Assembly (NCBI GenBank): GCA_013298145.1
Contig: JAAFJO010000003.1
Coordinates: 186,001-250,000, forward strand
Source of the DNA: Betaproteobacteria bacterium
GTDB lineage: Bacteria; Pseudomonadota; Gammaproteobacteria; Burkholderiales; Casimicrobiaceae
DNA length: 64,000 nucleotides
Direction: 5' to 3'
The position numbers were made by a program, and so were the translations under genes. This document shows positions 29,947 through 48,210 of this stretch, piece by piece. Every line of letters begins with the position of its first letter. Within the stretch, counting starts at the first letter, position 1. Below the pieces are notes generated by a model. The model ran no database searches. It saw only the letters and a program-made list of their open reading frames with translations, and was not told the origin of the DNA.

Positions 29947-30020
29947 AACTACTCCGTGTAACTTTTAGTGTCTTTATTTTTTTGCGTTAAGCGCAGAAGC
30001 CGTTACGGCCCCCCCAGCGC

Positions 30021-30737: not shown

Positions 30738-30774
30738 AGCTTCCTCTGCGATGGATTGCATCAATCCGGTGAAG

Positions 30775-31850: not shown

Positions 31851-32948
31851 ATGCGCATGACTGATCCGTGGGCAGCACATCGCGCTGCAATCTCTATTGA
31901 AGAGGGGGGAAGCGTCGTACATGCGCTTGGTGAACTGCTTCGGTGTCATGACAACGACATGGAAAACGTAATTTCTTTTCTCACCTGGCACGGGCTTTGT
32001 GGGCTCTGGAGCGAGGCGCTTTTGGCGCACCGAGGTGCTTCCAAAAATGATGGGTGGCACCACGACGCGGCGCTCAACGGACTGCACGACCGACTCTCGA
32101 ATTTGCAACGACAGCAATTCGCACATCAGCTTCTGCAAGATGCCGTGATGAAGCCAGCAAGCCGCGCGCTCGATCAAGCGTCTGTGCCGTATGTTTGGCT
32201 CAAAGCGGCGGCCGTTCGCGGTGAACTTTACCCACGCCCAGGGCTACGTCCTTCAACGGATCTTGATTTACTGGTTGCGCCAATCGACCGAGAGCGTGCT
32301 GTTCGTGCACTCGTCTCCGTGGGCGCAGTGTGCGTTGGGCCAGAAAGTTTCTCGTCGCACGAACAAGTCTTGCGGCATGGTTCGGTAGACCTTGATCTGC
32401 ACTGGCATGTGCTCGCACCAGGACGCCTGCGTCCCGGCGTCACTGAAGACATCCTGCGCGACCGTGTAGTTACGGCCAGCGGTGCGCGGCCGAGCCATTC
32501 GCACTTGCTCGCGCTCGCGCTCATCCACCCCGCTTTTGCGAAGCACGTATGTAGTCGCTACATGGGGCTAAACCGAGTGGCAGACACGTTGCGTATGCTT
32601 CGGCTGTGGAGTATTGAGGTAGAAGAGTTGATACAAGTTACAAAACGTTGGGGCGGCTTTACGGCGGCTAAAGCGAGTATTTATTGGTTATCGAAAATAA
32701 GTGAAATGGTCCGCTTGTCCCAATTAAACATGGCTTTCAATAGAGAAGCTAGCAAAGCGCGTGACAAATTCCTTGCCCGCAGAATCGACCAAAACTGGCC
32801 GGATCAGTGGGTTGATCGTTCGACGGCAATACTCGGCTTGACTTTTTCAGTGTGGCTGCAAGATTCGCCCAGCGACGCACTGCGCGCGGTTTGGGCGCGG
32901 GGCGCTCGTGCGCGGCATTCGATGACGAAGGCGAGTGCCCTCCTATGA
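31851..32948 (+). CDS. Nucleotidyltransferase-family protein, first gene of lasso cluster
   Basis: A 365-residue protein of the uncharacterised NTP_transf_5-like family. The core motif is YVWLKAAAVRGELYP (about 114-128) followed by STDLDLLV (135-142), whose two Asp residues would bind the metal, and later VDLDLHWHV. Members of this family are often seen beside lasso-peptide and other RiPP genes, but their reaction is not known to me. Its stop overlaps the next start (ATGA at 32945-32948), so it is co-translated with the exporter. The start could be 31851 or the second ATG at 31857; no clear ribosome-binding site. A related gene closes the cluster on the other strand (44865-46049). Confidence 0.85.
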   Translation: MRMTDPWAAHRAAISIEEGGSVVHALGELLRCHDNDMENVISFLTWHGLCGLWSEALLAHRGASKNDGWHHDAALNGLHDRLSNLQRQQFAHQLLQDAVMKPASRALDQASVPYVWLKAAAVRGELYPRPGLRPSTDLDLLVAPIDRERAVRALVSVGAVCVGPESFSSHEQVLRHGSVDLDLHWHVLAPGRLRPGVTEDILRDRVVTASGARPSHSHLLALALIHPAFAKHVCSRYMGLNRVADTLRMLRLWSIEVEELIQVTKRWGGFTAAKASIYWLSKISEMVRLSQLNMAFNREASKARDKFLARRIDQNWPDQWVDRSTAILGLTFSVWLQDSPSDALRAVWARGARARHSMTKASALL

Positions 32949-34633
32949 GCGATTTCATTCAGGCGCTCATTGGTTTTGCGCGCCCGCATCGCCGCGCTAT
33001 TGCGATTGGCGCTGCGTTTTTGGTAGCGGAGGCGTTGCTCGGGTTGCTATTGCCGTGGCTCGGCGGGCGCTTTGTCGACACCGTGTTTTCAGGCGTCACC
33101 CGCGGTGGATGGTCATTCACGATGATTCTGCTCGCAGTCGCCGCGCTCATTAGCTTCCAAACGGTTCTATCGGTAGTGGGCGGCTACATCGCTGCGAAAC
33201 GGGCGGTATTGATATCTGCGGATATCCGACGCCGAACGTACGACCATCTTCAGTCGCTGCCGCTTGGCTATTTCCAAGCGCGGCGCCATGGCGAAATTCT
33301 CTCTGTGCTCACCAATGATGTGGCGGTCGTGAGTTACTACTTGAGCGGCTCAGTAGTGGGCATTTTGCCGGCGGTGGTCACCGGGGTTGGCTCGCTTGTA
33401 TTGATGCTCTCAATCGATCCTTGGATGGCGCTTGCTGCCGCCACGGCGATTCCGCTCTTCTACGTGCTCATCAAACTGGTAGGGCGTGGCATTCGACCGC
33501 TGTCAGTGCAGCTGCAGGATGCCTGGGCCAAGAGCTTCGCCCTCGAAGAGGAAAACACCGCGTTGCTCCCGGCCATCAAATCCTTCGTTCGCGAACCGAT
33601 CGAAACCGATCGTCACCGGGAACGAATCAATCGCGTGGTGGACCTTACGCTTAAGCAGCAGTGGCGAGAAACGGCAATTGGTCCTGGCATGGCGTGGGCC
33701 GCGGCCATGGGCATGCTCGCGATTTTGTGGGTCGCCGGTGAACGGATCGTGGGCGGCGAAATGGGCAAAGGCGCCCTGGTGTCGTTTTTGCTCTACACCG
33801 CGCTTTTGACGCGTCCGGTGAGCTCGATGGCCTCGCTTTATGCACAAACGCAACATGCACGAGCGGCCATGGATCGCGTTCAGGGGCTCTACTCTGAGGC
33901 CTCCGAAGACTACGGTGAAGATCGACCTGCACTTTCCCTGCGCGGCGGCGAAATCGAGTTTCGTGACATAACCTTTGCCTACCCAAACCGCGAACCCGTG
34001 CTCAGGCAGTTCTCGCTCAGCGTTCCCGCACGGCAAACGCTAGCGATTACGGGCGACAACGGCGTGGGGAAATCAACGCTGATCTCGCTACTCTTGCGGA
34101 TCAACGTACCGAGCAGCGGGCAGATTCTTGTCGATGGACAAAATCTGGATTCGGTGTCTTTGCGCTCGATCCGTCAATCGGTCGGATACGTGTCGCAGAA
34201 CATTTTTCTGCTGAACGGCAGCGTGCGCGACAACATCGCCTTCGGCGCACCCAGCGCAACCGACGAGCAAATCCAGAACGCCGCGCGACTTGCGCAGGCC
34301 GCAACTTTTATCGATCAATTGCCCGAGCAGATGGAAACCATCATCGGTGACCATGGCGTGAAGCTCTCTGGCGGGCAACGGCAGCGACTCGCGCTGGCGC
34401 GGGCGCTGCTGGTTGATCCACCCATTTTGGTGCTCGACGAAGCCACTGCGATGTTCGATCCTGAGGCCGAACTGAGTTTCCTACATGAGTGCGCCGATGC
34501 GCTACGCACGAGAACTGTGTTGCTCATCACGCATCGCCCAGCAAGCCTTCGTTTGGCTGATCGCATCATCCGCCTAGATGCTGCCTTGAGTGGCCAGACG
34601 CCTCGTGTTGCGCTTGTGCCGCATCCGCCGTAG
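32945..34633 (+). CDS. ABC exporter of the lasso-peptide cluster (D protein)
   Basis: A 562-residue half-transporter with an N-terminal six-helix ABC membrane domain and a C-terminal ATPase. The start ATG at 32945 is fixed by the ATGA overlap with the upstream gene. The ATPase shows Walker A GDNGVGKSTL (from G370), Q-loop QSVGYVSQNIFLLNG, signature LSGGQRQRLALARALL, Walker B PPILVLDEAT and H-loop LLITHRPASL. In lasso clusters the D protein exports the mature peptide and gives self-protection. There is no N-terminal C39 peptidase domain, which fits a system with a separate leader peptidase. Confidence 0.92.
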   Translation: MSDFIQALIGFARPHRRAIAIGAAFLVAEALLGLLLPWLGGRFVDTVFSGVTRGGWSFTMILLAVAALISFQTVLSVVGGYIAAKRAVLISADIRRRTYDHLQSLPLGYFQARRHGEILSVLTNDVAVVSYYLSGSVVGILPAVVTGVGSLVLMLSIDPWMALAAATAIPLFYVLIKLVGRGIRPLSVQLQDAWAKSFALEEENTALLPAIKSFVREPIETDRHRERINRVVDLTLKQQWRETAIGPGMAWAAAMGMLAILWVAGERIVGGEMGKGALVSFLLYTALLTRPVSSMASLYAQTQHARAAMDRVQGLYSEASEDYGEDRPALSLRGGEIEFRDITFAYPNREPVLRQFSLSVPARQTLAITGDNGVGKSTLISLLLRINVPSSGQILVDGQNLDSVSLRSIRQSVGYVSQNIFLLNGSVRDNIAFGAPSATDEQIQNAARLAQAATFIDQLPEQMETIIGDHGVKLSGGQRQRLALARALLVDPPILVLDEATAMFDPEAELSFLHECADALRTRTVLLITHRPASLRLADRIIRLDAALSGQTPRVALVPHPP

Positions 34634-34710
34634 GCAAGTGGTGGACGGGTGTGGATCACCCACTCACGCGTGTGCAAGAATTCAGGGCTAGAGGGTTTAC
34701 AGCAAAAAAT

Positions 34711-35004
34711 ATGAGCGGTATTTGGGCACAAAAAATTGAGCTTTCCGAGGACGTTTTGCACCAAGAGCTGAGCGGTGAGACGGTACTTTTGAATCTCAAA
34801 ACGGAGCATTACTTCGGACTCGATCCCGTCGGCACACGAATTTGGCAAGTGCTCGGCGAGACCGCAAGCGCCGAAACGGTCATCGCCCGACTCCTCGACG
34901 AATACGAAGTGGACGAACCCACCCTCCGAGCAGACGTTGAGCGTTTGATCGACGAACTTGCAAAAGCCGGTTTGTTGCGTTTCGCGCAGGCCGAAGCCGC
35001 GTAG
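34711..35004 (+). CDS. PqqD-like RiPP recognition protein (lasso B1)
   Basis: A 97-residue PqqD-fold protein, the recognition half of a split lasso B enzyme. It binds the precursor leader and presents it to the protease. The start ATG is at 34711; the frame is open to 34651 but the added 20 residues look random. Family marks: the early strands QELSGETVLLNLKTEHYFGLDPVGTRIWQ, then ETVIARLLDEYEVDEPTLRADVERLIDELAKAGLL. The B2 peptidase begins seven bases after its stop. Split B1/B2 systems typically use a YxxP leader motif, which both precursors in this window have. Confidence 0.93.
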   Translation: MSGIWAQKIELSEDVLHQELSGETVLLNLKTEHYFGLDPVGTRIWQVLGETASAETVIARLLDEYEVDEPTLRADVERLIDELAKAGLLRFAQAEAA

Positions 35005-35011
35005 CCGAGCA

Positions 35012-35434
35012 ATGCTTAAAACGGCGCTGAGTTTTAATCGGGCGCAATGGCGTCATTTCGGTGCGGCGCTTGTGCTGTTGCCGCGTATCGACCTCAGGCT
35101 ACGACGGCTGGGCTACGCAGCGACCCGCGAATGGATTGATTCAGAAGCAGCAAAAGCCTTCAAGCCGTTGGTTTCACCGGACGAGATGGCGTTTTGTCGC
35201 GAAACCGCTGTTGCGGTGAGCGTGGCGGGTCGCCGCACGCTTTGGCGAACGTCCTGCCTGCGCCAAGCACTTGCGCTTCGCTATTTTCTTGGCCGTCGCG
35301 GTATTGAAACCGAGTTGCGTATCGGCGTTCGCGGCGGGCAGGGCGAGTTTGCGGCCCACGCATGGGTCGAAAAAAATGGCGCAGTGTTAATCGGCGGCGA
35401 GTACGCGGGCGAACGCTACGTCGCGCTAACTTAG
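35012..35434 (+). CDS. Transglutaminase-like leader peptidase (lasso B2)
   Basis: A 140-residue cysteine protease of the lasso B2 family (transglutaminase-like core) that cuts the leader from the precursor. Catalytic Cys82 lies in TSCLRQALALRYFLGRRG and His116 in AAHAWVEKNGAVLIGGE. The third catalytic residue expected about 12 positions later is not an obvious Asp (Gly128 there), so the triad partner is unclear. The start ATG 35012 is seven bases after the B1 stop; an open extension upstream overlaps B1 and is unlikely. It is the only B2 in the cluster, so it must serve both precursors. Confidence 0.93.
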   Translation: MLKTALSFNRAQWRHFGAALVLLPRIDLRLRRLGYAATREWIDSEAAKAFKPLVSPDEMAFCRETAVAVSVAGRRTLWRTSCLRQALALRYFLGRRGIETELRIGVRGGQGEFAAHAWVEKNGAVLIGGEYAGERYVALT

Positions 35435-35461
35435 GCGCTTCGGCGCAAACGGAAACCAGGT

Positions 35462-36586
35462 ATGTCCTACGCCGACCTCAATGGCCAGCGAACCATGGCG
35501 TTTGATAACGTCCGCAATGAGTTTTATGAGGCCGCGATCAAGAAAGTCGTCACGCCCGACTCCGTTGTACTTGACTTAGGCTCGGGCCTCGGCGTACATG
35601 CGCTCATGGCTGCAAGAGCCGGGGCTCGCCGCGTCTTCATGGTGGAACCAGAAAACGTCGTTCACTGCGCTAAAGAAATCGCAAAACACAACGGCTACGG
35701 CGATCGCATCGAAGCGTTTCAAGGGCGCATCGAAGAGGTAGAACTCCCCGAAAAGGTTGATGTCATTATCTCCGTGTTCACCGGAAATCTGTTGTACAGC
35801 GAGGATTTGCTGCCGTCGCTCTATTTCGCCCGCGATAAATGGCTTAAGCCAGGCGGAAGGCTAGTTCCCGACGGAGCAGAGCTCATGCTCGCGCCCATTT
35901 CGATTGAGAAAACATTCGAAGAAAACGTGGCGATCTGGTCAAAACCGCATCGCGGATTCGACTATTCGCCGTTACGGCGATATGCCTCGAACGGCTTTTT
36001 GAACGACCGCAGTAAGAATGCCAGCGGCGAATTGCTTGCGCCGGGGCAAGTGATCGCGAGCGCCGATTTCTACACCGCGCAAGAAACGAACCTCGACGCC
36101 ACCACCACATTTCAAATTGAAAAATCCGGAACCTGCCACGGCCTGCATGCCTGGATTCGCATTCACCTGGGCGACGAATGGGCGGCAACCGGGCCCATTC
36201 AAGCGCCGATGCATTGGACACCCACTACCTTCGCGCTGGATCCACCGCTCGCACTCGCGGAATCGGCGCTGCTCGAAACTCGGCTACGGCGTCCCCCGTT
36301 CGGCGAGTGGACGTGGGCAGTTAGCTCGGGCACTGCGCGCGCGCAGCATTCGACTTTTTTATCCACACCTATTTTGCCTTCGACCTTGAGAAACCGATCT
36401 GAGCGCGGCGCCCCCACCTTATCTGAGCGCGGTTTAGCAACAAAATTCGTACTCGAGCGACTCGACGGAAAAACGCTGAATTCCGAGCATAGCGACGCAG
36501 TCGCCAAAACTTTTCCAACACTTTTTTCGAGCTCTGCGGAGGCTACAAAGTTTGTTGTCGCGCTCGCGGGCCGCTTCGGCGCTTAG
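35462..36586 (+). CDS. PRMT-fold SAM-dependent methyltransferase of the lasso cluster
   Basis: A 374-residue class I methyltransferase whose first 200 residues follow the protein-arginine methyltransferase layout: NVRNEFYEAAI, SAM motif VLDLGSGLGVHALMAARAG, MVEPE, then the region equivalent to the double-E loop and FARDKWLKPGGRLVPD. At the double-E loop the first glutamate is replaced (Val105, in ISVFTGN) while the second is kept (Glu114, in YSEDLL), with the nine-residue spacing intact. Neither predicted lasso core contains arginine. So the acceptor is probably not arginine; a carboxylate, amide or lysine is conceivable (inference). It lies between B2 and cyclase 1 on the same strand with short gaps. 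Confidence 0.85.
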   Translation: MSYADLNGQRTMAFDNVRNEFYEAAIKKVVTPDSVVLDLGSGLGVHALMAARAGARRVFMVEPENVVHCAKEIAKHNGYGDRIEAFQGRIEEVELPEKVDVIISVFTGNLLYSEDLLPSLYFARDKWLKPGGRLVPDGAELMLAPISIEKTFEENVAIWSKPHRGFDYSPLRRYASNGFLNDRSKNASGELLAPGQVIASADFYTAQETNLDATTTFQIEKSGTCHGLHAWIRIHLGDEWAATGPIQAPMHWTPTTFALDPPLALAESALLETRLRRPPFGEWTWAVSSGTARAQHSTFLSTPILPSTLRNRSERGAPTLSERGLATKFVLERLDGKTLNSEHSDAVAKTFPTLFSSSAEATKFVVALAGRFGA

Positions 36587-36603
36587 CCCGCGCGGAAACG
36601 GTA

Positions 36604-38583
36604 ATGAGCGGTATCTGCGGGGTTTTGGCATTGGGGAGCGAGCGCGGGGATCGAGAATGTTTCGCAACGGGGCTCTGCGACCATCTCGTTCGAGAACTCC
36701 TCTGTATGGGGCGCGACGGGTCAAATCGCTGGGCTGAAGAGGATGTATCGCTCGGCCATGTCATGTTGCGTGAGACTCCTGAGTCGGCGAGCGAGAGCCA
36801 ACCGCTTTTGAGCAGCGACGATCGGTTGGTGATGGTGTTTGACGGTCGCATCGATAATCGACCTGCGCTTTTTTCGCTGATCGAAGAATCGGTCGCAATC
36901 GTTCCGCGAAACTGCTCTGACGCCGAACTCGCGCTCCGTGTTTATCAAGTGCTTGGCAACGCGACGCCAACCAAATTGCTTGGTGATTTTGCGTTCGCAG
37001 TATGGAATAGAGCTGAACGGTCTCTCTTTCTCGCGCGTGATCCGGTAGGAGGACGACTGCTTTATTTTGTCCAGACTAAGGACTACTTCGCGTTCGCGTC
37101 CCGCGACGAGGCACTCCTCGCTCTGCCGGGAATTACATCGGCACCGAACTACGAGTTGGTACTTCACGCGTTCGCCCCGCCAATCCCAAAGCCGTCCCAG
37201 TCAATGCGCGGGTGGTATCGTGACATCATGCGTTTTCCTTTTGGGCACGTCGCTGAAATCAAGGCGGGTAGCCCATCCCTCAGGCTGTGGCGCTACCCTC
37301 CCTGGTGCCCTGTTGAGAGCACTTATCCCAGCACCTTTGAGGAGGCGGTAAAGGCTGTCGCAGAACTGCTCGCGCTGGCCACCGCAGATCGCATGCGCGC
37401 CTGCAACATACCTGCCATGCTCATGAGTGGCGGTATCGATTCGGCCTCTGTGATCGCTGCGATGCGCGAGGTCATCCCCGCAACGCCTACATCTGAAAAG
37501 TCGCGTATCGTCGGTTTGTCGCTAGTCGACGAGGGTAATGAATGCTGTGTCGAGACGGCTGCAATTGTGCATTTGCACGAGCACTTTCATACCGAGCCCA
37601 TCTTTGTGTCCACTAGAGCCTCGGTTGGAGCGCAGCTCAAGGCGCATCTGATGCAGCAGTTTTTCGACCGTGCGCACCCACAGGACAACAGCAACGTGAC
37701 CCTATTTCCGTTGTTTCTTAGAGCACGGGAACAAGGGCTCACCAGCGTGCTCACAGGCGCAGGCGGCGATATCGTTTCTGATCGCACCGGAGCTGCGGTT
37801 GCTGGCGTGTGGCGTAGCCACGGACTGTGGCAAGCCTGGAACATGGCGCGTGCATTGAGCCGCAACAACGTCTATTTGCGCGAGACGCCTAGCAGCCGGA
37901 TTTTCTTGCAGGGCTGCCGCGGGCGAATCGCTACTTGGATTCCTCGGTGGCTTAAGCGTGTACTGCGCTGGTTTGCCTCGCGTCCGATCGTTGAGAGAAA
38001 CCCGTTTTTCGACAGGAAAGCGCTCCTGCGGTTGCTTGATGCACGCGAAAGTGGCCCAGGCACGATGCACTACCTCGGGGCCGAGCCTTCGAGTCCAGAA
38101 TCCGCGTCTAATAGCGCGCGCCGTCAGATGCTGCGTGCAGTTGGCGAAGGCCAGGATATGTTGCAACACGCTGCGTCTCGTTATGGCATCACGGCTTCGG
38201 ATGTGTGGAGCGACCTCCGTTTGATCAATTTCTTCCTGCGGCTGCCACTCGCGCTATCTTGTAACGATGGCTGGACGAAAGCGCCGGTACGCGCGTTCTT
38301 GACCCGCAGCGGCGTGAAAACCCGCGTAGCCTACAGGCTTGGGAAGGAACACATCGGTAGCGATCTTTTACGCCCGCTGCAACCCGCAATTCGGGCGTTC
38401 TCCGAATCGGTGCTTACAAAAGTTGGTCCGCTGGGCGTGATTGACGCCAAGCGCCTCGAGACTTACTTCGCCGCGCGCGAAAGCATCACAAATCTTCCTA
38501 GCTCACCGGCGGACGACGCAGCTGAAGACTTGGTCGACGCTACTGCCGCTGTGGCATTTGCAGCTTGGGTGTTGCGAACGTGA
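36604..38583 (+). CDS. Lasso peptide cyclase 1 (asparagine-synthetase-like C protein)
   Basis: A 659-residue ATP-dependent macrolactam synthetase. It has an N-terminal glutaminase-like domain (MSGICGVLALGS, DGRIDNRPALFSLIEE, GDFAFAVWNRAERSLFLARDPVG) without Cys at position 2, so ammonia production is unlikely. The C-terminal synthetase domain has the pyrophosphate loop MSGGIDSASV (SGGIDS 275-280) and TGAGGDIVS. Lasso C enzymes adenylate the Asp/Glu side chain and join it to the core N-terminus. It sits 17 bases after the methyltransferase and 126 bases before precursor 1, with which it is likely paired. Confidence 0.92.
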   Translation: MSGICGVLALGSERGDRECFATGLCDHLVRELLCMGRDGSNRWAEEDVSLGHVMLRETPESASESQPLLSSDDRLVMVFDGRIDNRPALFSLIEESVAIVPRNCSDAELALRVYQVLGNATPTKLLGDFAFAVWNRAERSLFLARDPVGGRLLYFVQTKDYFAFASRDEALLALPGITSAPNYELVLHAFAPPIPKPSQSMRGWYRDIMRFPFGHVAEIKAGSPSLRLWRYPPWCPVESTYPSTFEEAVKAVAELLALATADRMRACNIPAMLMSGGIDSASVIAAMREVIPATPTSEKSRIVGLSLVDEGNECCVETAAIVHLHEHFHTEPIFVSTRASVGAQLKAHLMQQFFDRAHPQDNSNVTLFPLFLRAREQGLTSVLTGAGGDIVSDRTGAAVAGVWRSHGLWQAWNMARALSRNNVYLRETPSSRIFLQGCRGRIATWIPRWLKRVLRWFASRPIVERNPFFDRKALLRLLDARESGPGTMHYLGAEPSSPESASNSARRQMLRAVGEGQDMLQHAASRYGITASDVWSDLRLINFFLRLPLALSCNDGWTKAPVRAFLTRSGVKTRVAYRLGKEHIGSDLLRPLQPAIRAFSESVLTKVGPLGVIDAKRLETYFAARESITNLPSSPADDAAEDLVDATAAVAFAAWVLRT

Positions 38584-38709
38584 TGCTGTGGAATTGGCTA
38601 CACCGTCTGCCTTGGCGCCTGCGCAATCGAAGAGTTCGATCGACGTGGGCCTTGTTACAGGCTCTAGTGGTAAAAAGTAGGTGCGATTCTCGCGGAGGCT
38701 CAAAATATT

Positions 38710-38910
38710 ATGCAAAACATTACAAAGCAAGCGTCACAATTGGTACGCGGAAAGCTGTCTTACGTTGCTCCGACACTGCTGCGGCACGGGAGTGTGTCAA
38801 TGCTGACGTGTTCGGGATCGAGCGGGGGTAATGAGGTTATGAATACCTCCACGTGTCCCAACCCCACGAAAAAAATGCTCGGAGCCGACGGGAACTGTAG
38901 CGCAACCTAA
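38710..38910 (+). CDS. Lasso peptide precursor 1 (predicted 8-residue ring, Ser1-Glu8)
   Basis: A 66-residue precursor. GGAGG lies 11 bases before the ATG. The leader carries the lasso recognition signature YVAPTLLRHG (Tyr18, Pro21, Leu23, Gly27) with Thr33 at +15 from the Tyr, i.e. the usual Thr at position -2. Cleavage after Cys34 leaves a 32-residue core beginning SGSSGGNEVMN, with Glu42 at core position 8, correct for an eight-residue macrolactam. Cutting before Cys34 instead would give a nine-residue ring (Cys1-Glu9). Cys49 and Cys63 are both in the tail and could form a tail-internal disulfide; the core ends CSAT. There is no arginine in the core. The gene directly follows cyclase 1. 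Confidence 0.85.
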   Translation: MQNITKQASQLVRGKLSYVAPTLLRHGSVSMLTCSGSSGGNEVMNTSTCPNPTKKMLGADGNCSAT

Positions 38911-38920
38911 CGGGTTGCGC
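38900..38920 (+). promoter_or_regulatory. Hairpin enclosing the stop codon of precursor 1
   Basis: GCGCAACC (38900-38907) and GGTTGCGC (38913-38920) form a perfect 8-bp stem with a five-base loop that contains the TAA stop. No T-run follows. It could stabilise the precursor mRNA end or partly attenuate reading into the downstream oxygenase gene, letting precursor outnumber enzymes (inference). Confidence 0.6.
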
Positions 38921-38997
38921 CTCCGTCGATCTGCTCCCGCGCGGTGGCCTGACTGTGGCGCGGTTGTCTTCTAATTCAACCAGGTCAAATCCTGCTG

Positions 38998-39594
38998 ATG
39001 CTCTTCGTTAATACGTATTTGCGAGGGCAAAACAATTTGGCAGATGCGCTGTTCGCTTTTGCTACTCAAAATGAGCGTGAATTCGATCTAGCGCGAATTG
39101 CGGCTTCCCACGGGGCGATTGACGTAGGGACCCGGAATTCGAGAGTTTTGCGGCGTTGGGCTGAAACAAGCCAAGCCGAAGAGTTTGGGCATTTAGTGCT
39201 CGAAACAGCGCAAGAAGTCATCTCCTCAATGGGACTCGTTAACTCGACTGTGAGTGACGTTGAGCTGGAGATGGCGCAGCACGGCGATGGTGGTTTTTAT
39301 CGCCGCCATATCGATACCCTCACGGGTACGCATCGAGATAGCGCCGCCCGGGTTCTGTCTTGCGTTTACTACTTCCACGCGCCGCAGAAGCGTTTTACGG
39401 GTGGCAACCTACGGCTATTCCCATTGCCCCTGAGCAGGGGATCACAGGAGCCCTTCGAGATCGAGCCAGTGCACAATAGATTGGTGGTTTTCCCATCTTG
39501 GATGCCACACGAAGTGATGCCGACGCGCGTCCCTAGCCAGCGGTTCGAACACTCGCGCTTCTCGATCAACTGTTGGCTCTACGGACATCGGTAG
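38998..39594 (+). CDS. 2-oxoglutarate/Fe(II)-dependent dioxygenase of the lasso cluster
   Basis: A 198-residue prolyl-4-hydroxylase-like oxygenase. The iron facial triad is visible as His-x-Asp in YRRHIDTLTG and the distal His in PSWMPHEVMP. The following basic residue within RFEHSRFSINCWLYG is placed to bind 2-oxoglutarate. The double-stranded beta-helix strands LSCVYYFH and NRLVVFPSW fit. It lies 87 bases downstream of precursor 1, so a hydroxylation of a lasso core is likely (for example Asp, Pro or Asn). Aspartate beta-hydroxylation by an enzyme of this class is known for the lasso peptide canucin. Which of the two cores it acts on is open. Confidence 0.87.
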   Translation: MLFVNTYLRGQNNLADALFAFATQNEREFDLARIAASHGAIDVGTRNSRVLRRWAETSQAEEFGHLVLETAQEVISSMGLVNSTVSDVELEMAQHGDGGFYRRHIDTLTGTHRDSAARVLSCVYYFHAPQKRFTGGNLRLFPLPLSRGSQEPFEIEPVHNRLVVFPSWMPHEVMPTRVPSQRFEHSRFSINCWLYGHR

Positions 39595-39919
39595 CGCTCA
39601 TCGCGAGCTCGCGCGTTGGCGTTCGCGCGGCTGCTGTGTTGTCACTGAGTGCGGCGTCACGGTGTGGAGATAGGCTAACCACAGGCACGCTGCGAGCGCC
39701 GCCTCGCTGGAGGAGAACGTCGCGGCGGCAGCGGGGTTGAACCTCATTTGCGGCGTCTGCTTGAAACGCAACATTTGCTGAAGCCGTTTTTTTCGCGTGC
39801 CCTCTGACTAATCTGTCGAAATTCTCACGTCGTCAAAGGTAGCCTTCACTACGCTATGATCCATTTGAGTGATGCGCTGCGCATAGCGATCCTTGCTACG
39901 CCACATAGAAGAAAAACGC
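39595..39919. other. Intergenic region before the kinase gene
   Basis: About 325 bases inside the otherwise compact cluster. I searched it for a further precursor (YxxP leader motif) and found none in the frames I read. A TATGAT hexamer at 39855-39860 is a plausible -10 element, with only a weak -35 (GTCAAA-like, near 39832-39837), so an internal promoter for the kinase-methyltransferase-cyclase 2 half is possible. Confidence 0.4.
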
Positions 39920-40897
39920 ATGTCCGACCGAGATAAGACGATTTGGGTTCATCACGCGCACGGGCTGCGCATCGTTGCTGACTTCCAGATCAGTGAGGGT
40001 CAGGCGGTGCGTTGCGACGGCGAGGTGCACAGGAGCAGGGCCGGGGACGTTGTGTTGCGAAAAGTCTCCGCAAAACGACTACCGATCCCGACGCGTGGCG
40101 AATGGAACGTAAGAAACTCAGGCGGCATCTCGGTTGCGCTCGGACACTACGGCACCTTGCTGCACTCCTATTGTGGCTCAGCGGCGCTAATTCCGCCGGA
40201 TGTTGTGGACGTTGAGAACGCAGAGATTTTGGTCTCGCGCGGGAAGTCAATTTCGACGACACGGTTTAATCACACAATCCTGCATGCGTTTATCCCGCAA
40301 ATACTCGCGCTTCGCGATGAGGTCGTGCTGCATTCGACCTCGGTAATTATTGACGGGCGCTGCTATTTGTTCGCGGGCGATAGTGGTATGGGCAAATCAA
40401 CGCTTGCGGCGGGATTTGCTAGGCTCGGGCACACCATCTTCTCCGAGGATATCGCTCGGCTTGAGTTTGCGCACCAGCGTCGCCCGGTCGCGTTCCCAAG
40501 CTATCCAGGCGTGCGGCTGCGAGGGAACAGTTTTCTGTTACCCGCCGATTTGCGGACCAACGAGGTCGGTCGGTTTGGTTTGCCGAAATTTCGTGTCAAC
40601 GCCGAAACTTCGATTGCACAAGAACTGCCAACTCCGGTGCACGCGATTTTCTTCCTTAGGCTAGGAACTACGCTTCGACCAAAAATCGTTCGGTTGAGCC
40701 CGATGCAGGCAATCAAGCCCTACCTCAAAGCCAGCTTCTTACTTGCGTTTCCCAAAGCTACCCGAGCGAGGATCGCGTTCGCGCAAACGGTGAAGCTCGC
40801 CAGCGCGATCCCAGCGTTCAGTTTGAGTTACAAACGATCTGCTCCACATTTTGGGGAGTTGTTGGAAACGCTCGTGGAAAGCGCGAAGCGCGTTTAA
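39920..40897 (+). CDS. HPr-kinase-like kinase of the lasso cluster
   Basis: About 325 residues from the ATG 39920; a start at 39893 adds nine residues. The Walker A loop is GDSGMGKSTL (153-162), followed by GHTIFSEDIARL, the arrangement of the HPr kinase/phosphorylase catalytic domain. The N-terminal part is unrelated to the classical HprK N-domain. In several lasso clusters such kinases (PadeK and ThcoK are the described ones) phosphorylate the hydroxyl of the precursor's C-terminal residue. Precursor 1 ends in Thr, precursor 2 in Asn, so precursor 1 is the likelier substrate (inference). Confidence 0.87.
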   Translation: MSDRDKTIWVHHAHGLRIVADFQISEGQAVRCDGEVHRSRAGDVVLRKVSAKRLPIPTRGEWNVRNSGGISVALGHYGTLLHSYCGSAALIPPDVVDVENAEILVSRGKSISTTRFNHTILHAFIPQILALRDEVVLHSTSVIIDGRCYLFAGDSGMGKSTLAAGFARLGHTIFSEDIARLEFAHQRRPVAFPSYPGVRLRGNSFLLPADLRTNEVGRFGLPKFRVNAETSIAQELPTPVHAIFFLRLGTTLRPKIVRLSPMQAIKPYLKASFLLAFPKATRARIAFAQTVKLASAIPAFSLSYKRSAPHFGELLETLVESAKRV

Positions 40898-40962
40898 TGG
40901 CTTAACCAGTGGTTGGTTTTGAGATTTCATGCGCGCAAGCATCGTCCGAAAGGGTCTTTTGA

Positions 40963-42600
40963 GTGGGCGCTAACGTAAACACGCAATCCAGCGCCGAGAG
41001 CGCGGGGCTGATGAGCTCGGAAGCTGACTGCGCTTTGCTGGTTGCAGAAATCGGGCGCGCCTACGATGCGCTGCCCTACGCGTCTGGCGCCTTCGCGTGC
41101 ACTCACCCCAACCGCCTGGGTGCGATCGGCTACTTGCATGGATTGAACTGCGCAAAGCCCTCTGCATGCCGGGTGCTTGAAATCGGGTGTGCGTCAGGCG
41201 GTAATCTCCTGCCTATCGCGCTGAACTACCCGGCGAGTGAATTTGTAGGCGTTGACTTATCTTCCGCACATATCGCCGAAGCGCGCAGGGCAGTAGACGA
41301 GCTTGCGATAAAAAACGTGCGTTTGATTCGAGCTGACATTCGAGCGCTGCCTCAGGACGTGGGGCGCTTCGACTACATCATTTGCCACGGTGTCTACAGC
41401 TGGGTCCCGAGTGAGGTGCGTCAAAGTATTTTGAAGCTTTGTGGCGAGCGGTTGGCAGCTGGCGGGGTCGCGTACATCAGTTTCAACACCTATCCGGGCT
41501 GGCACAAACACGATCGGCTTCGTCGACTCGTTGACTGCGTCGTTAAGGGGCAAGTGACGGACCCAATCGCAGCCGTTGAAAGAGCCAAGGATTGGCTCCG
41601 GAAATTGCCGACTGGAAAATCATCCGATCCTAGAAGCAACTGGATGGACAACGCGCTGCAAGAATCCATACGCGCTTTTTTGAGTGCCTCCCCTGAGTAT
41701 CTATATCACGAGTACTTGAATCGGGTTAATGAGCCCGAGCAAATTTCTAGCTTTTTGAGGCAAGCGCGTTCGCATGAGCTCCACTACATCAACCACGCCG
41801 ATTGGAGCTATGCCGCTCAAGCCGAACGCGCGGTGGCAGAAGCGAATGTCGAATCGCTTGGCTTGAGCCGCGACGCGCTTGAGACACTCGTAGATGACTT
41901 GCTATGCACACAATTTCGCTGCACGGTGCTTTGCCGCGTTGACGAGACCATAACCGAACGTCCTTTACTAGATCGGCTCGACGAATTGTGGGTCGCGTGT
42001 AGATTTTCGCTTTTGTCGACCGATGCTCAAAGCGACGATCTAGCCAAGCCATCGCCAGCATCGCTAAGCATTGAGCGCAACGGCCAGGTGACGCGACTCA
42101 TGCTTCCGGCGGCAATTGACGTCGTTCAACAAATATGGCGTGCGCGCCCCGAGTATCGAAATGTTGCGAGCATTATTCAAGTTGCAAACCAGCATACGCT
42201 GGGACCAACGGTCACCCACGCGATTCGACACAGCGTTCTAATGCTCACCAAGGCCAACGCTCTTGACCTGGTCATGGAACCGTTTCGAATCAGTTCATGT
42301 CTGTCGCGGCCCCCGAAACTCGACCCCTGGGCCTCGTATCAGCTTAGAGCTGGCGCGAGACACGTGTCTGGGATTAGTCATGAGGAACTGCAGCTCAATG
42401 AAGCCTGGCTCGAAAGTTCGCCAACGAACCGCGCGTTGGGCCCTCTCTCTGAGATGCTTTCTCGCATTGCACAGCAACTTAATGCAGATTCCGCCGTTGA
42501 CGGCTTGATCACCTCCGAGTCGCAAGCGTCGTTCACTGCGCTTCAGCGGAGAGAACTACAGATTCTTCGTTCGCTTCACACTGCGGGTGTTGTCACGTGA
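40963..42600 (+). CDS. Class I methyltransferase with methyltransferase-regulatory-type domain
   Basis: A 545-residue protein. The GTG start at 40963 has AAGGG about eight bases upstream; an ATG at 41011 is an alternative. The SAM-binding domain has VLEIGCASGGNLLPIAL, FVGVDLSSAHIAEA, IRADIRALP and YIICHGVYSWVP. About residues 170-300 (YISFNTYPGWHKHDRLRRLV...) match the regulatory domain that follows such methyltransferases. The last 250 residues are helical and of unknown function. It is 65 bases after the kinase and 103 before cyclase 2, so it probably belongs to the lasso cluster. Whether it methylates a lasso core or another substrate cannot be read from sequence. Confidence 0.82.
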   Translation: MGANVNTQSSAESAGLMSSEADCALLVAEIGRAYDALPYASGAFACTHPNRLGAIGYLHGLNCAKPSACRVLEIGCASGGNLLPIALNYPASEFVGVDLSSAHIAEARRAVDELAIKNVRLIRADIRALPQDVGRFDYIICHGVYSWVPSEVRQSILKLCGERLAAGGVAYISFNTYPGWHKHDRLRRLVDCVVKGQVTDPIAAVERAKDWLRKLPTGKSSDPRSNWMDNALQESIRAFLSASPEYLYHEYLNRVNEPEQISSFLRQARSHELHYINHADWSYAAQAERAVAEANVESLGLSRDALETLVDDLLCTQFRCTVLCRVDETITERPLLDRLDELWVACRFSLLSTDAQSDDLAKPSPASLSIERNGQVTRLMLPAAIDVVQQIWRARPEYRNVASIIQVANQHTLGPTVTHAIRHSVLMLTKANALDLVMEPFRISSCLSRPPKLDPWASYQLRAGARHVSGISHEELQLNEAWLESSPTNRALGPLSEMLSRIAQQLNADSAVDGLITSESQASFTALQRRELQILRSLHTAGVVT

Positions 42601-42703
42601 GGGGTAGAGTACGACCGCACCGCACTGAACAAGCGGATAGTCGGGCCACAAACGTTGATCCATCGGATTCCCCAAAACCTCCATATCACTTCGCCGGGCT
42701 GAT

Positions 42704-44566
42704 ATGTCTCTGACCGCATTTGTAGTTCGACTATCGCTCCCAGCTTTAGCTTGCACGGCGAGCCACCGAGCCGTCTCTGCGTTTCTCGAAAAGCTCGCTG
42801 AACAAAAAGCGTCGCAAATCGATGTTGGTTTTGCGAGAATCGACTATGCGTCGGTTTACTCGAACCGCAGCGAGCCCGCGATTGCTTTCTGCCCTGATCC
42901 TCAAGACCCCTTACTGTCCCGCACCCTCGTGTTTGATGGGTGGCTCGAAAATCGCGAAGAGTTGATTGCTCAGCTCTCCGTGCTCGATGCAACGCCGGAG
43001 AGCAGCGACCCTGAACTCGTACTCAAATGCATCGAGCGATGGGGAACAGCTGCGCCAAAGCACCTGTACGGCGAGTACTCGTTCGTCTGCGTTGAGAAAT
43101 CGCAGCATAGCGATGTGCCGGAAGTATTTGCAGTGCGCGACAAGGTTGGCATACGACCGCTTTTTTTTGCGACCATCGACGGTGCGATAGCGATCAGTAA
43201 TTTTCCAGGCGCGCTATCGGTCATTCCGTGGGTAGGCAGCGAGATCAATGAGGGCTATGCGGCAGAGTTCTTGTGCGCGGACGTAAATTCCATCGATGAG
43301 ACGTTGTACAAGCACGTGCGACGGTTACGTGGCGGCTGTTTTTTTCGTTCTACCCTGCGTTCGTCGGTTACTCCGAAACGATATTGGTATCCGCCCTCCC
43401 ACGTAACGATGTCAGACGCGCCTCGAGCTGCGGTTGCTCTTCGAAAACGCCTGGATCACGTGGTTGGCAGCGCCTTGCGCGCTCCGGGGCTGGTCGGGGT
43501 GCAGATGAGTGGCGGAATAGATTCGTCGAGTGTCGCGTGTGTAGTGGCGGGGCTCGTCGACGCCGGCGCGATAAACGCTGCTCGGGTGCGCGGTATGTCC
43601 CAGATCTACCCCGGTCTGCCTTGCGATGAAACAGCCTATATCGAAGCACTTGAGACCGTACTCCCGTTTGACGTGCAAAAGCTCAAGCCCACGTACGCGG
43701 ACGCTGCGTTGCTCGACAGTTGGAGCGAGCGATTGCGCCACCCGGTGTTTTCTTTCGCCAGCACAGCCTCGCTACTGCACGACAGGCATCATCGCAATTT
43801 AGGCGGTGGTGTCGTCGTTACAGGCGAGGGGGGTGACGAGCTATTTCAGCCAACCTCGCGCTCGCTCTTCGCTTTGAGCTCTCTCGGACATTTATCCATC
43901 GCGGTCCGGCATGTGCGTCAAACATATGATTTTTTTTCGGGCCGGGTCAACGCCCGTGGTGCGATCGCGCTAACGCTCGAATCGGTCGCTCCCGCGTACT
44001 TTCGGAATGTACTGAGGCGCATGCAGAGGCTTCGGAAAAACTGGAAGCCGTCGGTCGACGCCGCGTGGGCGGAAAGAGTGAAGCTCCGCCGTAGGCTCGA
44101 TCGCTTGCGCGTGAGCGGCGCCGCGCGAACGCTCGCTGTTGAACTCGCGCTCACGGGCGGCGCGCATTACGCGTTAGAACACATGTACGAGTCTAATTTC
44201 GTTCGCGGGATCGAGAAACGCTGTCCGTTACTCTCGGCCAGTATCCTCGAATTCGTTAACCAGCTGCCGCTCGAGTTGATGGACTCTCCGACCGGCAGAA
44301 GCCGACAACTTTTGCGCGAAAGCGTACGCGAGCGCCTCCCGGCGCTAATTCGCGATCGTATGCACAAATCCGAGTTCACCGCCTCGGTGCTCCCGGCCCT
44401 CGTGGAGCTTGCCACTCAGCGCTTCGGAAGAAACTTCGTTCGTCCGCCGCTTGGCAAGGCCGGGCGATCGTCGTTAAGTGCGACCGCAAATCGTTACGTA
44501 TGGCAGCTAGATGCTGCTCAGGCTTACCGAGCGTGGCTTACTGCAATCGGTCAATCCGACAGCTAA
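42704..44566 (+). CDS. Lasso peptide cyclase 2 (asparagine-synthetase-like C protein)
   Basis: A 620-residue paralogue of cyclase 1. The N-terminal glutaminase-like domain lacks the catalytic Cys (MSLTAFVVRLS), but later parts of that fold are present (LVFDGWLENREELIAQL, YGEYSFVCV, VRDKVGIRPLFFA). The synthetase domain has MSGGIDSSSVACV (SGGIDS 269-274) and VTGEGGDELF. It precedes precursor 2 by 127 bases, repeating the cyclase-then-precursor order of the first pair. The two cyclases are clearly diverged, as expected if each is tuned to a different ring (8 versus 9 residues; inference). Confidence 0.92.
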   Translation: MSLTAFVVRLSLPALACTASHRAVSAFLEKLAEQKASQIDVGFARIDYASVYSNRSEPAIAFCPDPQDPLLSRTLVFDGWLENREELIAQLSVLDATPESSDPELVLKCIERWGTAAPKHLYGEYSFVCVEKSQHSDVPEVFAVRDKVGIRPLFFATIDGAIAISNFPGALSVIPWVGSEINEGYAAEFLCADVNSIDETLYKHVRRLRGGCFFRSTLRSSVTPKRYWYPPSHVTMSDAPRAAVALRKRLDHVVGSALRAPGLVGVQMSGGIDSSSVACVVAGLVDAGAINAARVRGMSQIYPGLPCDETAYIEALETVLPFDVQKLKPTYADAALLDSWSERLRHPVFSFASTASLLHDRHHRNLGGGVVVTGEGGDELFQPTSRSLFALSSLGHLSIAVRHVRQTYDFFSGRVNARGAIALTLESVAPAYFRNVLRRMQRLRKNWKPSVDAAWAERVKLRRRLDRLRVSGAARTLAVELALTGGAHYALEHMYESNFVRGIEKRCPLLSASILEFVNQLPLELMDSPTGRSRQLLRESVRERLPALIRDRMHKSEFTASVLPALVELATQRFGRNFVRPPLGKAGRSSLSATANRYVWQLDAAQAYRAWLTAIGQSDS

Positions 44567-44581
44567 TGTGACTCGTTGTTG

Positions 44582-44629
44582 ATGCAAGCTTCCCGGGGTT
44601 AACCGCGAAGTCGCGGAAATCGCTTGCAT
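44582..44629 (+). promoter_or_regulatory. Inverted repeats upstream of precursor 2
   Basis: ATGCAAGC (44582-44589) and GCTTGCAT (44622-44629) form an 8-bp inverted repeat whose right arm covers the -35 hexamer of precursor 2. Between them is a second palindrome CCGCGA-AG-TCGCGG (44603-44616). It may be an operator, or an imperfect terminator of cyclase 2; there is no T-run. Confidence 0.5.
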
Positions 44630-44652
44630 GTAAGACTTCGTGTTGCTATTAT
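44624..44652 (+). promoter_or_regulatory. Sigma70-type promoter of lasso precursor 2
   Basis: TTGCAT (44624-44629), 17-base spacer, TATTAT (44647-44652), close to consensus with optimal spacing. Transcription would start near 44659, about 35 bases before the precursor ATG. This gives the precursor its own strong promoter inside the cluster. Confidence 0.75.
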
Positions 44653-44693
44653 CTGTGCGGGTATGTGTTAACCTGACCTTGAGGTGGATCAAT

Positions 44694-44864
44694 ATGAAAA
44701 TTAAACAAATTTACGGCGCGCCAACTGTCACAGCACTGGGTTCATTGAGTGGGCTCACTCGTGCAACGAACATGGGGCCCTACTGCGATCAAGTTGTTGG
44801 GGTTCTTGCGCCCAACAGCATTGTTCAGATGAGTGGAACCTGCAATACAGTTCCAAACAACTAG
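44694..44864 (+). CDS. Lasso peptide precursor 2 (predicted 9-residue ring, Ala1-Asp9)
   Basis: A 56-residue precursor with ribosome-binding site GAGGTGG (44681-44687) six bases upstream. The leader is short (23 residues) and has YGAPTVTALG with Tyr7, Pro10, Val12, Gly16 and Thr22, the same spacing as precursor 1. With Thr at -2, the core starts at Ala24: ATNMGPYCDQVVG..., placing Asp32 at core position 9 for a nine-residue ring. Cys31 (core 8) is inside the ring and Cys50 (core 27) in the tail, so a ring-to-tail disulfide is possible. The 33-residue core has no Lys or Arg. It is flanked by its own promoter and terminator. Confidence 0.88.
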   Translation: MKIKQIYGAPTVTALGSLSGLTRATNMGPYCDQVVGVLAPNSIVQMSGTCNTVPNN

Positions 44865-46049
44865 TCAGCGCAGTATTTTTCGCAATAGAGTAATGGCACC
44901 CGAATGGGTGCCATTATTTTTTGTAGGTTGGGAATGCTGATAGAACGCTTTGGTCGGCGATCCCGCGACACGCAACAATGCGAAGAGCGCTTTTGTGCTG
45001 CGCAAACGGAGCAAATTCCGCACCCAGACGGCACGTCGGGTATCCGGATGCGCCTCGGGTTCTGCTAGAAGATCACGGCATACCGCTTTAGTTGGAAGTC
45101 TTGCTGGCTTCCGAAGCGTCAAAAGTTTCGCAATGACGTCGTCATTGGCGAGGCCGGCTTTAATCGTCGGCGTCGGGGGCGACGCTAATGTACGTGGCGC
45201 CCTGTGCTCTTCGCTGGATAGGGTTAGTCTCAAGTAATCAACGCTCGCCTTCATCTCTACCCGGTGGGATCCAGCGACATTTGCTTCCGCCACGAGACTG
45301 CATGCGCTGGGCGTGAGCGCAACGATTTTCCTGCCGAAAACTGAAGTGTTTTGCGTGTCTTCCGCAAGCTCCAACCTGTTCGCCGCTGCATCAAGCCACT
45401 CGTTGGCGACCTTCCAGTGCAAATCTACCTCCAGCGCACCGTTGAGCGACCTGAACGACACCTGTCTCATCGTCGCCAGCGCCGTGGGGTCTTGCAGCCA
45501 CTCAGTCGCGAATTCGCAGGTGTATCCTGCGGAAACAAGGATTAGTCCCGCGTCATACGCATCGGCTGGGGACACAAGCAGGTCAATGTCACGTACATCT
45601 CGCAAGTCGGCATCCCCATAACAGAGAAGCGACAGTGGCGCGCCTTTGAGGAGTGTGGCGTATACGCCGTGTTTGTGCAGGCGATCACATAAGTCAATTG
45701 CCGCGAGTCCAATCACCCGGTTCCACCTTCGTCTCAGCGCGGACTTCGCGTTCATCGCGTCCAATACGCTTTTTTCGCACCCGAGGGAGTCAATCGAAAG
45801 CCGATGCGTGATCCACGTGAGCATCACTTCGTTGTCTGCCGCCTCGGCTAGCGCTTCCCACTCGGCTTTTTCCCATGACGCAAAGAGCGGGCGCAGGTCA
45901 GCGGCCGCTCCGTAACCGGGCGCCACGGCGAGCATGAATAAACCCAGCCGCGCCTCGCTCACGACAAACCCATAGCGTTTTCCGATGCGTTCGGCGACCA
46001 CATGAATTCGCTCGTTTGCTTCGTTCGATATTGCTTCAACTGCGTTCAT
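44865..46049 (-). CDS. Nucleotidyltransferase-family protein closing the lasso cluster
   Basis: About 394 residues from the ATG 46047-46049; the frame is open to 46112. It is the same NTP_transf_5-like family as the gene at 31851: YATLLKGAPLSLLCYGDADLRD precedes DIDLLVSP, then VDLHWKVANEW. It is transcribed toward precursor 2, and its stop (complement 44865-44867) directly abuts the precursor stop codon. Its last codons encode the precursor-2 terminator hairpin, so about 20 C-terminal residues are dictated by that structure. The role is unknown. The pair of such genes at the two ends suggests they belong to the lasso system. Confidence 0.82.
   Translation of the reverse strand: MNAVEAISNEANERIHVVAERIGKRYGFVVSEARLGLFMLAVAPGYGAAADLRPLFASWEKAEWEALAEAADNEVMLTWITHRLSIDSLGCEKSVLDAMNAKSALRRRWNRVIGLAAIDLCDRLHKHGVYATLLKGAPLSLLCYGDADLRDVRDIDLLVSPADAYDAGLILVSAGYTCEFATEWLQDPTALATMRQVSFRSLNGALEVDLHWKVANEWLDAAANRLELAEDTQNTSVFGRKIVALTPSACSLVAEANVAGSHRVEMKASVDYLRLTLSSEEHRAPRTLASPPTPTIKAGLANDDVIAKLLTLRKPARLPTKAVCRDLLAEPEAHPDTRRAVWVRNLLRLRSTKALFALLRVAGSPTKAFYQHSQPTKNNGTHSGAITLLRKILR
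44891..44922 (+). terminator. Intrinsic terminator of lasso precursor 2
   Basis: Perfect 11-bp stem TAATGGCACCC (44891-44901) / GGGTGCCATTA (44906-44916), four-base loop GAAT, then six T residues. It lies 27 bases after the precursor stop and inside the 3' coding end of the convergent gene. Confidence 0.95.
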
Positions 46050-46151
46050 GCGCTCGTCGTTTCTCCGGGCTTCGCCGAGTGTAAGCGTCGCCAACAACAC
46101 GCCACGCGTCATAAGCGCGGCGCTTGATAGACTTCATCCTGACATTTTGCC

Positions 46152-47171: not shown

Positions 47172-47210
47172 AAAACAATTAAGCGCCCAATTTTCAACAG
47201 GGCGAAACGC

Positions 47211-48173: not shown

Positions 48174-48210
48174 TCGGCGTGTTGATTTGCCTGATTGAAA
48201 GACTGCGCTG

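What the first reader, a model, noticed from the sequence alone, without database searches (positions are those of the whole stretch)
31851..46112. Two-precursor lasso-peptide cluster with one shared processing/export set
Seen in sequence: one ABC exporter, one PqqD-like B1, one transglutaminase-like B2, but two asparagine-synthetase-like cyclases and two distinct precursor genes, in the order D-B1-B2-MT-C1-A1-Ox-K-MT-C2-A2, with a nucleotidyltransferase-family gene at each end. Known: lasso maturation needs A, B and C; split B uses a YxxP leader. Inference: a composite system making two heavily tailored lasso peptides in a betaproteobacterium. I am not aware of a described cluster with this gene order.
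Basis: partly seen in the sequence, partly recalled or inferred. Interest (0 to 1): 0.93.

Follow-up and report, generated by a model that had tools for sequence, protein, structure and literature searches.

The report
Two lasso-peptide modules sharing one chassis
A bacterial genome carries two different peptide-plus-cyclase gene modules beside one set of leader-binding, leader-cutting and export genes, so one small assembly line is predicted to make two different knotted (lasso) peptides, and the same layout recurs in three related genomes.

Summary
Between 31851 and 46112 lie NT1-D-B1-B2-MT-C1-A1-Ox-K-MT-C2-A2 on the plus strand and NT2 on the minus strand. B2 passes the lasso-B2 cut-off; C1 and C2 fit the lasso-cyclase model best (below its strict cut-off), keep SGGIDS and lack the glutaminase Cys2. 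Both small ORFs have the lasso leader pattern (Y-17, P-14, G-8, T-2) and ring acids Glu8 and Asp9. Three same-genus genomes carry the same frame at the same polysaccharide locus, with two or three cyclase-precursor pairs but one B2 and one exporter. C1 and C2 lie in separate clades, so this is no recent duplication; in one relative the C1/A1 slot holds a different lasso set. In a Pseudomonadota sample, 0 of 64 other B2 loci showed two such cyclases within about 10 kb, a lower bound. The parts are known kinds; several cyclases on one B1/B2/exporter set was not found in eight paper searches of an open-licence library. Verdict: new variant of a known kind. That both peptides are made, and how they are modified, is predicted, not shown.

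The parts
31851..32948 (+). NT1, PF14907 nucleotidyltransferase-like protein
   Evidence: PF14907 86.8 bits
32942..34633 (+). D, ABC exporter
   Evidence: PF00664 138.1 and PF00005 112.7 bits
34711..35004 (+). B1, PqqD-like leader-binding protein (RRE); open frame begins 34651
   Evidence: PF05402 70.1 bits for the 34651-35004 frame
35012..35434 (+). B2, transglutaminase-like leader peptidase
   Evidence: NF033537 81.5 bits over cut-off 33; Cys82 and His116 in 85 of 85 aligned B2 rows
35462..36586 (+). PRMT-like methyltransferase with an altered double-E loop
   Evidence: PF22528; PRMT2 structures 1e-36; Val at the first Glu in 127 of 134 rows
36604..38583 (+). C1, lasso cyclase
   Evidence: NF033535 203.8 bits, below cut-off 525; SGGIDS, no Cys2; own clade
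38710..38910 (+). A1, precursor; predicted core SGSSGGNEVMNTSTCPNPTKKMLGADGNCSAT, ring Ser1-Glu8
   Evidence: leader pattern and acid at position 8; shuffle control
38998..39594 (+). Ox, Fe(II)/2-oxoglutarate oxygenase
   Evidence: PF13640 71.1 bits; H104, D106, H171 in 4 of 4 aligned rows
39893..40897 (+). K, HprK-like kinase (an ATG lies at 39920)
   Evidence: TIGR04352 31.8 bits, below cut-off; H147, G167, K168 and D186 conserved in 60-61 of 61 rows
40963..42600 (+). second methyltransferase with PF10119 regulatory domain
   Evidence: PF13649 62.1, PF10119 40.8 bits
42704..44566 (+). C2, lasso cyclase
   Evidence: NF033535 162.1 bits, below cut-off 525; SGGIDS, no Cys2; clade of 40 rows
44694..44864 (+). 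A2, precursor; predicted core ATNMGPYCDQVVGVLAPNSIVQMSGTCNTVPNN, ring Ala1-Asp9, likely Cys8-Cys27 disulfide
   Evidence: leader pattern and D9; homologues
44865..46112 (-). NT2, PF14907 nucleotidyltransferase-like protein
   Evidence: PF14907 81.4 bits

Best explanation
This is a composite lasso-peptide gene cluster in which two cyclase-precursor modules (C1-A1 and K-C2-A2) of separate cyclase clades stand beside a single B1, B2 and ABC exporter gene, and it is predicted to make two different lasso peptides with that one shared set. Shown by sequence: the genes, their order, the two leader patterns with identical spacing, and the same frame in three relatives. Inferred: B1 would grip the YxxP motif of either leader; tailoring enzymes would act on the linear precursors (kinase most likely on A2, oxygenase perhaps on its neighbour A1); B2 would cut one residue after Thr(-2); C1 would close a Ser1-Glu8 ring on A1 and C2 an Ala1-Asp9 ring on A2, each likely choosing its precursor by the core, since the leader reader is shared; Cys8 and Cys27 of A2 would form a ring-to-tail disulfide; the exporter would carry both out; the PF14907 proteins may add nucleotidyl or sugar groups, as proposed for PsmN.
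For: Profiles. Two precursors with Y(-17), P(-14), G(-8), T(-2) and acids at 8 and 9; 2 motif hits against 0.14 in shuffles. Four of 13 B2-bearing genomes of the family have two or more Cys2-less cyclases in this polysaccharide locus: G000, G006, G013 (three), G015; each genome has a single NF033537 match. A2: T(-2)-D9 spacing and GPYxD in 7 of 7 distinct peptides, Cys8 with Cys27 in 6 of 7. First-slot precursors: acid at position 8 in 6 of 6. A kinase of one clade lies upstream of each of the 5 C2-clade genes in held loci (in the window the second methyltransferase lies between). Leaders of A1 and A2 resemble each other more within a cluster than in any other pairing (1 of 24 permutations). 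For 13 of 19 C2-clade proteins on contigs of 12 kb or more, the PRMT-like gene is on a contig of the same length or in the same locus.
Against: No product, transcript or enzyme activity is shown. C1, C2 and B1 fall below the cut-offs of the narrow lasso models, and precursor models give weak or no matches. First core residues Ser, Gln and Asn of the A1 family are unusual as far as I recall. G015 has a second B1 in the first module, so sharing of B1 is not universal, and G009 has the C1-type cyclase and frame genes without any C2. The permutation test rests on four clusters. The kinase target is unclear: no C-terminal Ser and no Ser/Thr position common to all A2 cores (read).
Confidence: 0.82

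Rival explanations
1. One cyclase-precursor pair is a recent tandem duplicate of the other, so the two products are near-equivalent.
For: Same gene types side by side; in G013 the K-C2-A2 module does occur twice, with an IS integrase fragment between the copies.
Against: The cyclase tree puts C1 and C2 in separate clades, each at 100 local support; cores, ring acids and ring sizes differ. The tree is FastTree with many long branches, and it flags the join of window C1 with G009's cyclase as uncertain.
Confidence: 0.03
2. Only one module is functional; the other is a remnant of a second cluster that has lost its own B1, B2 and exporter.
For: No second B1, B2 or exporter gene of these families in the cluster; no expression data.
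Against: All reading frames are intact, motifs are kept, A2 is 80% identical to G006's A2 while C2 is 55%, and the layout persists in four genomes.
Confidence: 0.1
3. C2 (or C1) is a polysaccharide-locus amidotransferase and not a lasso cyclase.
For: The cluster lies inside a polysaccharide locus that has an AsnB-type gene at 48211-50070, and TIGR03108 also matches C1 and C2 weakly.
Against: C1 and C2 lack the N-terminal Cys2 that the true AsnB has (MCGIA), score best with the lasso cyclase model, and each precedes a precursor.
Confidence: 0.02
4. The products stay linear, like the linear polyphosphorylated peptides (LPPs) of Bacilli.
For: Kinase and nucleotidyltransferase genes inside a polysaccharide locus recall LPP and paeninodin loci (PMC13381572, passages and Discussion).
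Against: LPP clusters lack a cyclase; here two are kept, each beside a precursor with a properly placed ring acid.
Confidence: 0.03

Closest known systems
Bsf cluster of Bradymonas sediminis (A, B1, B2, C, D, kinase BsfK, nucleotidyltransferase BsfN; PMC10368454, passages seen)
   Same: Split B1/B2, exporter, HprK-like kinase and nucleotidyltransferase
   Different: One precursor and one cyclase; Ile at -2 instead of Thr; phosphate on Ser3
Paeninodin and pseudomycoidin clusters (PadeK, PsmK, PsmN; PMC9266682, passages seen)
   Same: Kinase, and in pseudomycoidin a nucleotidyltransferase, on a split-B lasso cluster
   Different: One precursor and cyclase (as recalled); phosphate on a C-terminal Ser, which neither core has here; WxxP leaders in paeninodin-like precursors (PMC13381572), YxxP here
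Canucin cluster with Fe/2OG enzyme CanE (PMC9266682, passages)
   Same: Fe/2OG oxygenase on a split-B lasso cluster
   Different: CanE hydroxylates a C-terminal Asp; target here unknown
Co-localised LPP and lasso clusters of Bacilli (PMC13381572, passages and Discussion)
   Same: Two RiPP pathways together, often near capsule genes
   Different: There each pathway has its own RRE that discriminates leaders; here one B1 stands beside two cyclases and both leaders are YxxP
Multi-precursor lasso clusters such as caulosegnin and astexin (recalled, no call); rumen genomes with more than one lasA (PMC7533575, passages)
   Same: Several precursors in one cluster or genome
   Different: As recalled, caulosegnin and astexin use one cyclase for all precursors; here each precursor follows its own cyclase

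Membership tests
Lasso peptide biosynthetic cluster | Split leader-binding protein B1 (PqqD fold) | tested here: met
   PF05402 70.1 bits over cut-off; lasso PqqD models below their cut-offs
Lasso peptide biosynthetic cluster | Leader peptidase B2 | tested here: met
   NF033537 81.5 bits, cut-off 33
Lasso peptide biosynthetic cluster | Asparagine-synthetase-like cyclase C | tested here: met
   Two genes; best model NF033535 but below its cut-off of 525; Asn_synthase over cut-off; SGGIDS
Lasso peptide biosynthetic cluster | Precursor with YxxP leader, Thr(-2) and Glu/Asp at 7-9 | tested here: met
   Both precursors; curated precursor models below cut-off or silent
Lasso peptide biosynthetic cluster | Threaded product | not testable with these tools
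   needs LC-MS or NMR
Paeninodin-type phosphorylated lasso peptide | HprK-like kinase gene | tested here: met
   weak HprK-related match below cut-off; H147, Gly-Lys and D186 kept, Glu185 where 54 of 61 rows have Asp
Paeninodin-type phosphorylated lasso peptide | C-terminal Ser in the core and WxxP leader | tested here: not met
   cores end in Thr and Asn; leaders are YxxP
Protein arginine methyltransferase | Double-E loop (recalled) and an Arg in the substrate | tested here: not met
   Val at the first Glu in 127 of 134 rows, Asp in 5, Glu in 2; no Arg in either core
Polysaccharide-locus amidotransferase (AsnB type) as identity of C1 or C2 | N-terminal Cys2 | tested here: not met
   MSGIC and MSLTA against MCGIA in the neighbouring AsnB
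Linear polyphosphorylated peptide (LPP) cluster | No cyclase; archaeal-type signal peptidase | tested here: not met
   two cyclases; no such peptidase among the thirteen genes profiled

The most novel reading that the evidence does not exclude
A plug-in lasso platform: one RRE, protease and exporter form a constant chassis with exchangeable cyclase-precursor slots, so that routing is decided by cyclase-core recognition and not by leader-RRE pairing; one slot (A2, GPYCD ring with Cys8-Cys27) is held constant, the other is swapped between species, and the pair works with the surface polysaccharide whose locus hosts it.
Probability: 0.35. Interest if true: 0.75.

Novelty: new variant of a known kind. 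Interest (0 to 1): 0.52.

Why it matters
Neighbouring RiPP pathways in Bacilli were reported to stay apart because each has its own RRE (PMC13381572). Here two lasso pathways appear to run through one RRE and one protease. If both peptides are made, the cyclases would have to sort precursors by core sequence, which makes cyclase-core recognition directly testable and offers a natural model for making several lassos on one chassis.

Tried and rejected
Recent tandem duplication: rejected for the window by the cyclase tree. C1 or C2 as polysaccharide amidotransferase: rejected (no Cys2). Arginine methylation by the first methyltransferase: unlikely. Phosphorylation of a C-terminal Ser as in paeninodin: not possible on these cores. 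Plasmid relatives: tblastn of B2 found 3 plasmid records at 37-45% identity, none covering 80%. The promoter/terminator scan gave no signal: 1 promoter-like site against 6.2 in shuffles, 13 terminator-like sites against 19.4. Base composition shows no step at the cluster. The genome-contig scan with a C2 alignment returned 2 loci, both relatives already held. Solved structures: C2 has one partial match (7ylz, 2.7e-07), K nothing better than E 0.042. No convincing precursor was found beside the oxygenase-bearing clusters L040, L042 and L080, so the oxygenase target could not be inferred.

Limits of the census: windows of about 10 kb on each side of B2 would have missed the second cyclase of G015, about 14 kb away; several contigs end early; only Pseudomonadota were sampled. 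Not fetched: two order hits under the cut-off (G121, G181) and four phylum hits under it (G735, G731, G490, G792). In the cyclase tree the overlapping stretches L022, L023 and L045 were left out as duplicates. The 134 rows hold some proteins twice or three times (the window's own three times).

Full report
What is there. The region 31851-46112 holds twelve plus-strand genes and one convergent gene: NT1, ABC exporter, B1, B2, a PRMT-like methyltransferase, C1, A1, an Fe/2OG oxygenase, an HprK-like kinase, a second methyltransferase, C2, A2, and NT2 on the minus strand. Profiles agree. B2 passes the curated lasso B2 cut-off. B1 passes Pfam PqqD but not the narrow lasso PqqD models. C1 and C2 pass Pfam Asn_synthase; among NCBIfam models the lasso cyclase scores best for both but stays below its strict cut-off. 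Outside lie polysaccharide genes: Wzc-, Wza- and Cps4B-like genes on one side, two sugar epimerase/dehydratase-like genes and an AsnB-type amidotransferase on the other. That AsnB starts MCGIA; C1 (MSGIC) and C2 (MSLTA) lack Cys2 but keep SGGIDS.

Precursors. A1 and A2 each follow a cyclase gene. Both carry Y(-17), P(-14), G(-8), T(-2) with identical spacing. A1 would give a 32-residue core with Glu8, A2 a 33-residue core with Asp9. A scan with a motif of this kind finds two hits in the cluster, 0.14 on average in 200 shuffles, with 3 of 200 shuffles reaching two; over the whole window there is one further, unrelated hit. Curated precursor models are below cut-off for A1 and silent for A2.

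Relatives. Nine of 17 genomes of the genus and 13 of 64 of the family have a lasso B2. Four of these 13 (G000, G006, G013, G015) have two or more Cys2-less cyclases in the locus; eight have one; in one (G014, a 5 kb contig) none is seen. All four lie between the same Wzc/Wza/phosphatase-like genes and the same epimerase-like gene and share NT1-ABC-B1-B2-PRMT-...-K-C2-A2-NT2. G006 has the window's order without the oxygenase and the second methyltransferase. G013 has three cyclases and three precursors. G015 has a different first module: its cyclase and kinase group with those of G003, G004 and G383 on starred branches and its second B1 with the same set on unstarred ones. G015's ABC, B2 and PRMT group with the window's set on starred branches; its first B1 lies nearest to that set without a starred branch. 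Each of the four genomes has a single NF033537 match.

How common. In a Pseudomonadota sample of 397 genomes, 53 had a B2 match, 49 over the cut-off. I fetched about 10 kb on each side of all 64 over-cut-off loci other than the window's own: 46 show one Cys2-less cyclase, 18 none, 0 two. Of eight further loci of the order, 4 show one and 4 none. This is a lower bound: G015 itself would count as one in such a window, and some contigs end early.

The C2 family in metagenomes. In one search the best 36 of 120 listed proteins (P0121-P0156, 258 bits or more) are followed by a fall to 137 bits, a discrete family. For 12 of these 36 the longest contig has the same length as that of one of the 120 listed methyltransferase hits (of 679); G006 adds one by locus. 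Of the 19 with contigs of 12 kb or more, 13 have the partner. I take equal lengths as the same contig; that was not verified.

Two modules of different origin. The cyclase tree (107 rows, FastTree) puts C2 in a clade of 40 rows and C1 in a clade of 4 with G006, G013 and G009, each at 100 local support. Many branches are long, and the program warns about the join of window C1 with G009's cyclase inside the second clade. The kinase tree has the five C2-side kinases together at 99 (SH-aLRT). A2 changes less than C2 (80% against 55% identity to G006), so the A2 product looks constrained, while the first slot varies and is exchanged.

Shared processing. One B2 and one exporter of this family for two or three pairs is seen in all four clusters, one B1 in three of four. 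A1 and A2 leaders of the same cluster resemble each other more than in any other pairing (mean 3.75 of 12 free positions, 2.84 over all pairings; 1 of 24 permutations); four clusters are few. This is what a common B1 would favour.

Tailoring. The first methyltransferase matches PRMT2 and PRMT6 structures (about 1e-36) but has Val at the first Glu of the double-E loop in 127 of 134 aligned rows, and neither core has Arg, so its target is likely not Arg. The kinase keeps His147, Gly-Lys and Asp186; Glu replaces the first Asp of the pair, as in 6 of 58 rows of the tree. The oxygenase keeps HxD...H in 4 of 4 rows. Targets are unknown.

Against what is known. Kinase plus nucleotidyltransferase lasso clusters are described (Bsf, PMC10368454, passages; PadeK, PsmK/PsmN, StspM, CanE in PMC9266682, passages). 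Rumen genomes with more than one lasA are reported (PMC7533575, passages). RREs that keep neighbouring pathways apart are described in PMC13381572 (passages and the Discussion), which also notes capsule loci. Eight paper searches listed nothing recognisable as a lasso cluster with two cyclases on one B set; PMC13352647 and PMC8498205 were searched for such terms without a relevant hit. The library holds only open-licence papers.

Verdict. I rate it a new variant of a known kind: known parts, a conserved layout that I did not find described, and a clear question (how are two precursors sorted when the leader reader is common?).

Noticed in passing
L021:2982-3425, L038:12313-12720, and a fragment at L024:8134-8250: Lasso-like precursors (YxxP leader, Thr, ring acid) fused at the C-terminus to a Peptidase_S74 chaperone domain (PF13884, 28.9 and 37.7 bits, cut-off 22); a profile built from the two also hits L024. 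A paper search for 'lasso peptide' with 'S74' gave only one unrelated paper.
   Followed up: partly
window 27655-31584 and 46152-50070: The cluster is embedded in a polysaccharide locus (Wzc-, Wza-, Cps4B-like genes; epimerase/dehydratase-like genes; AsnB), as in the three relatives with the same layout. PMC13381572 notes the same habit for lasso and LPP clusters of Bacilli.
   Followed up: partly
L023:3641-4243: An integrase-core (PF00665, 65.1 bits) fragment lies between the second and third cyclase modules of G013, a possible trace of how the K-C2-A2 module was doubled.
   Followed up: partly
window 35462-36586: The PRMT-like methyltransferase belongs to a large family (679 hits, capped; some named as cyanobacterial) with a common SVFTGN loop instead of the PRMT Glu; function unknown.
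   Followed up: partly
L072, L073, L076, L085, L089, L102, L109: B2 and B1 with kinase and nucleotidyltransferase but no full-length cyclase in the stretch (18 of 64 phylum loci show none): possible linear, LPP-like RiPP clusters in Pseudomonadota.
   Followed up: no
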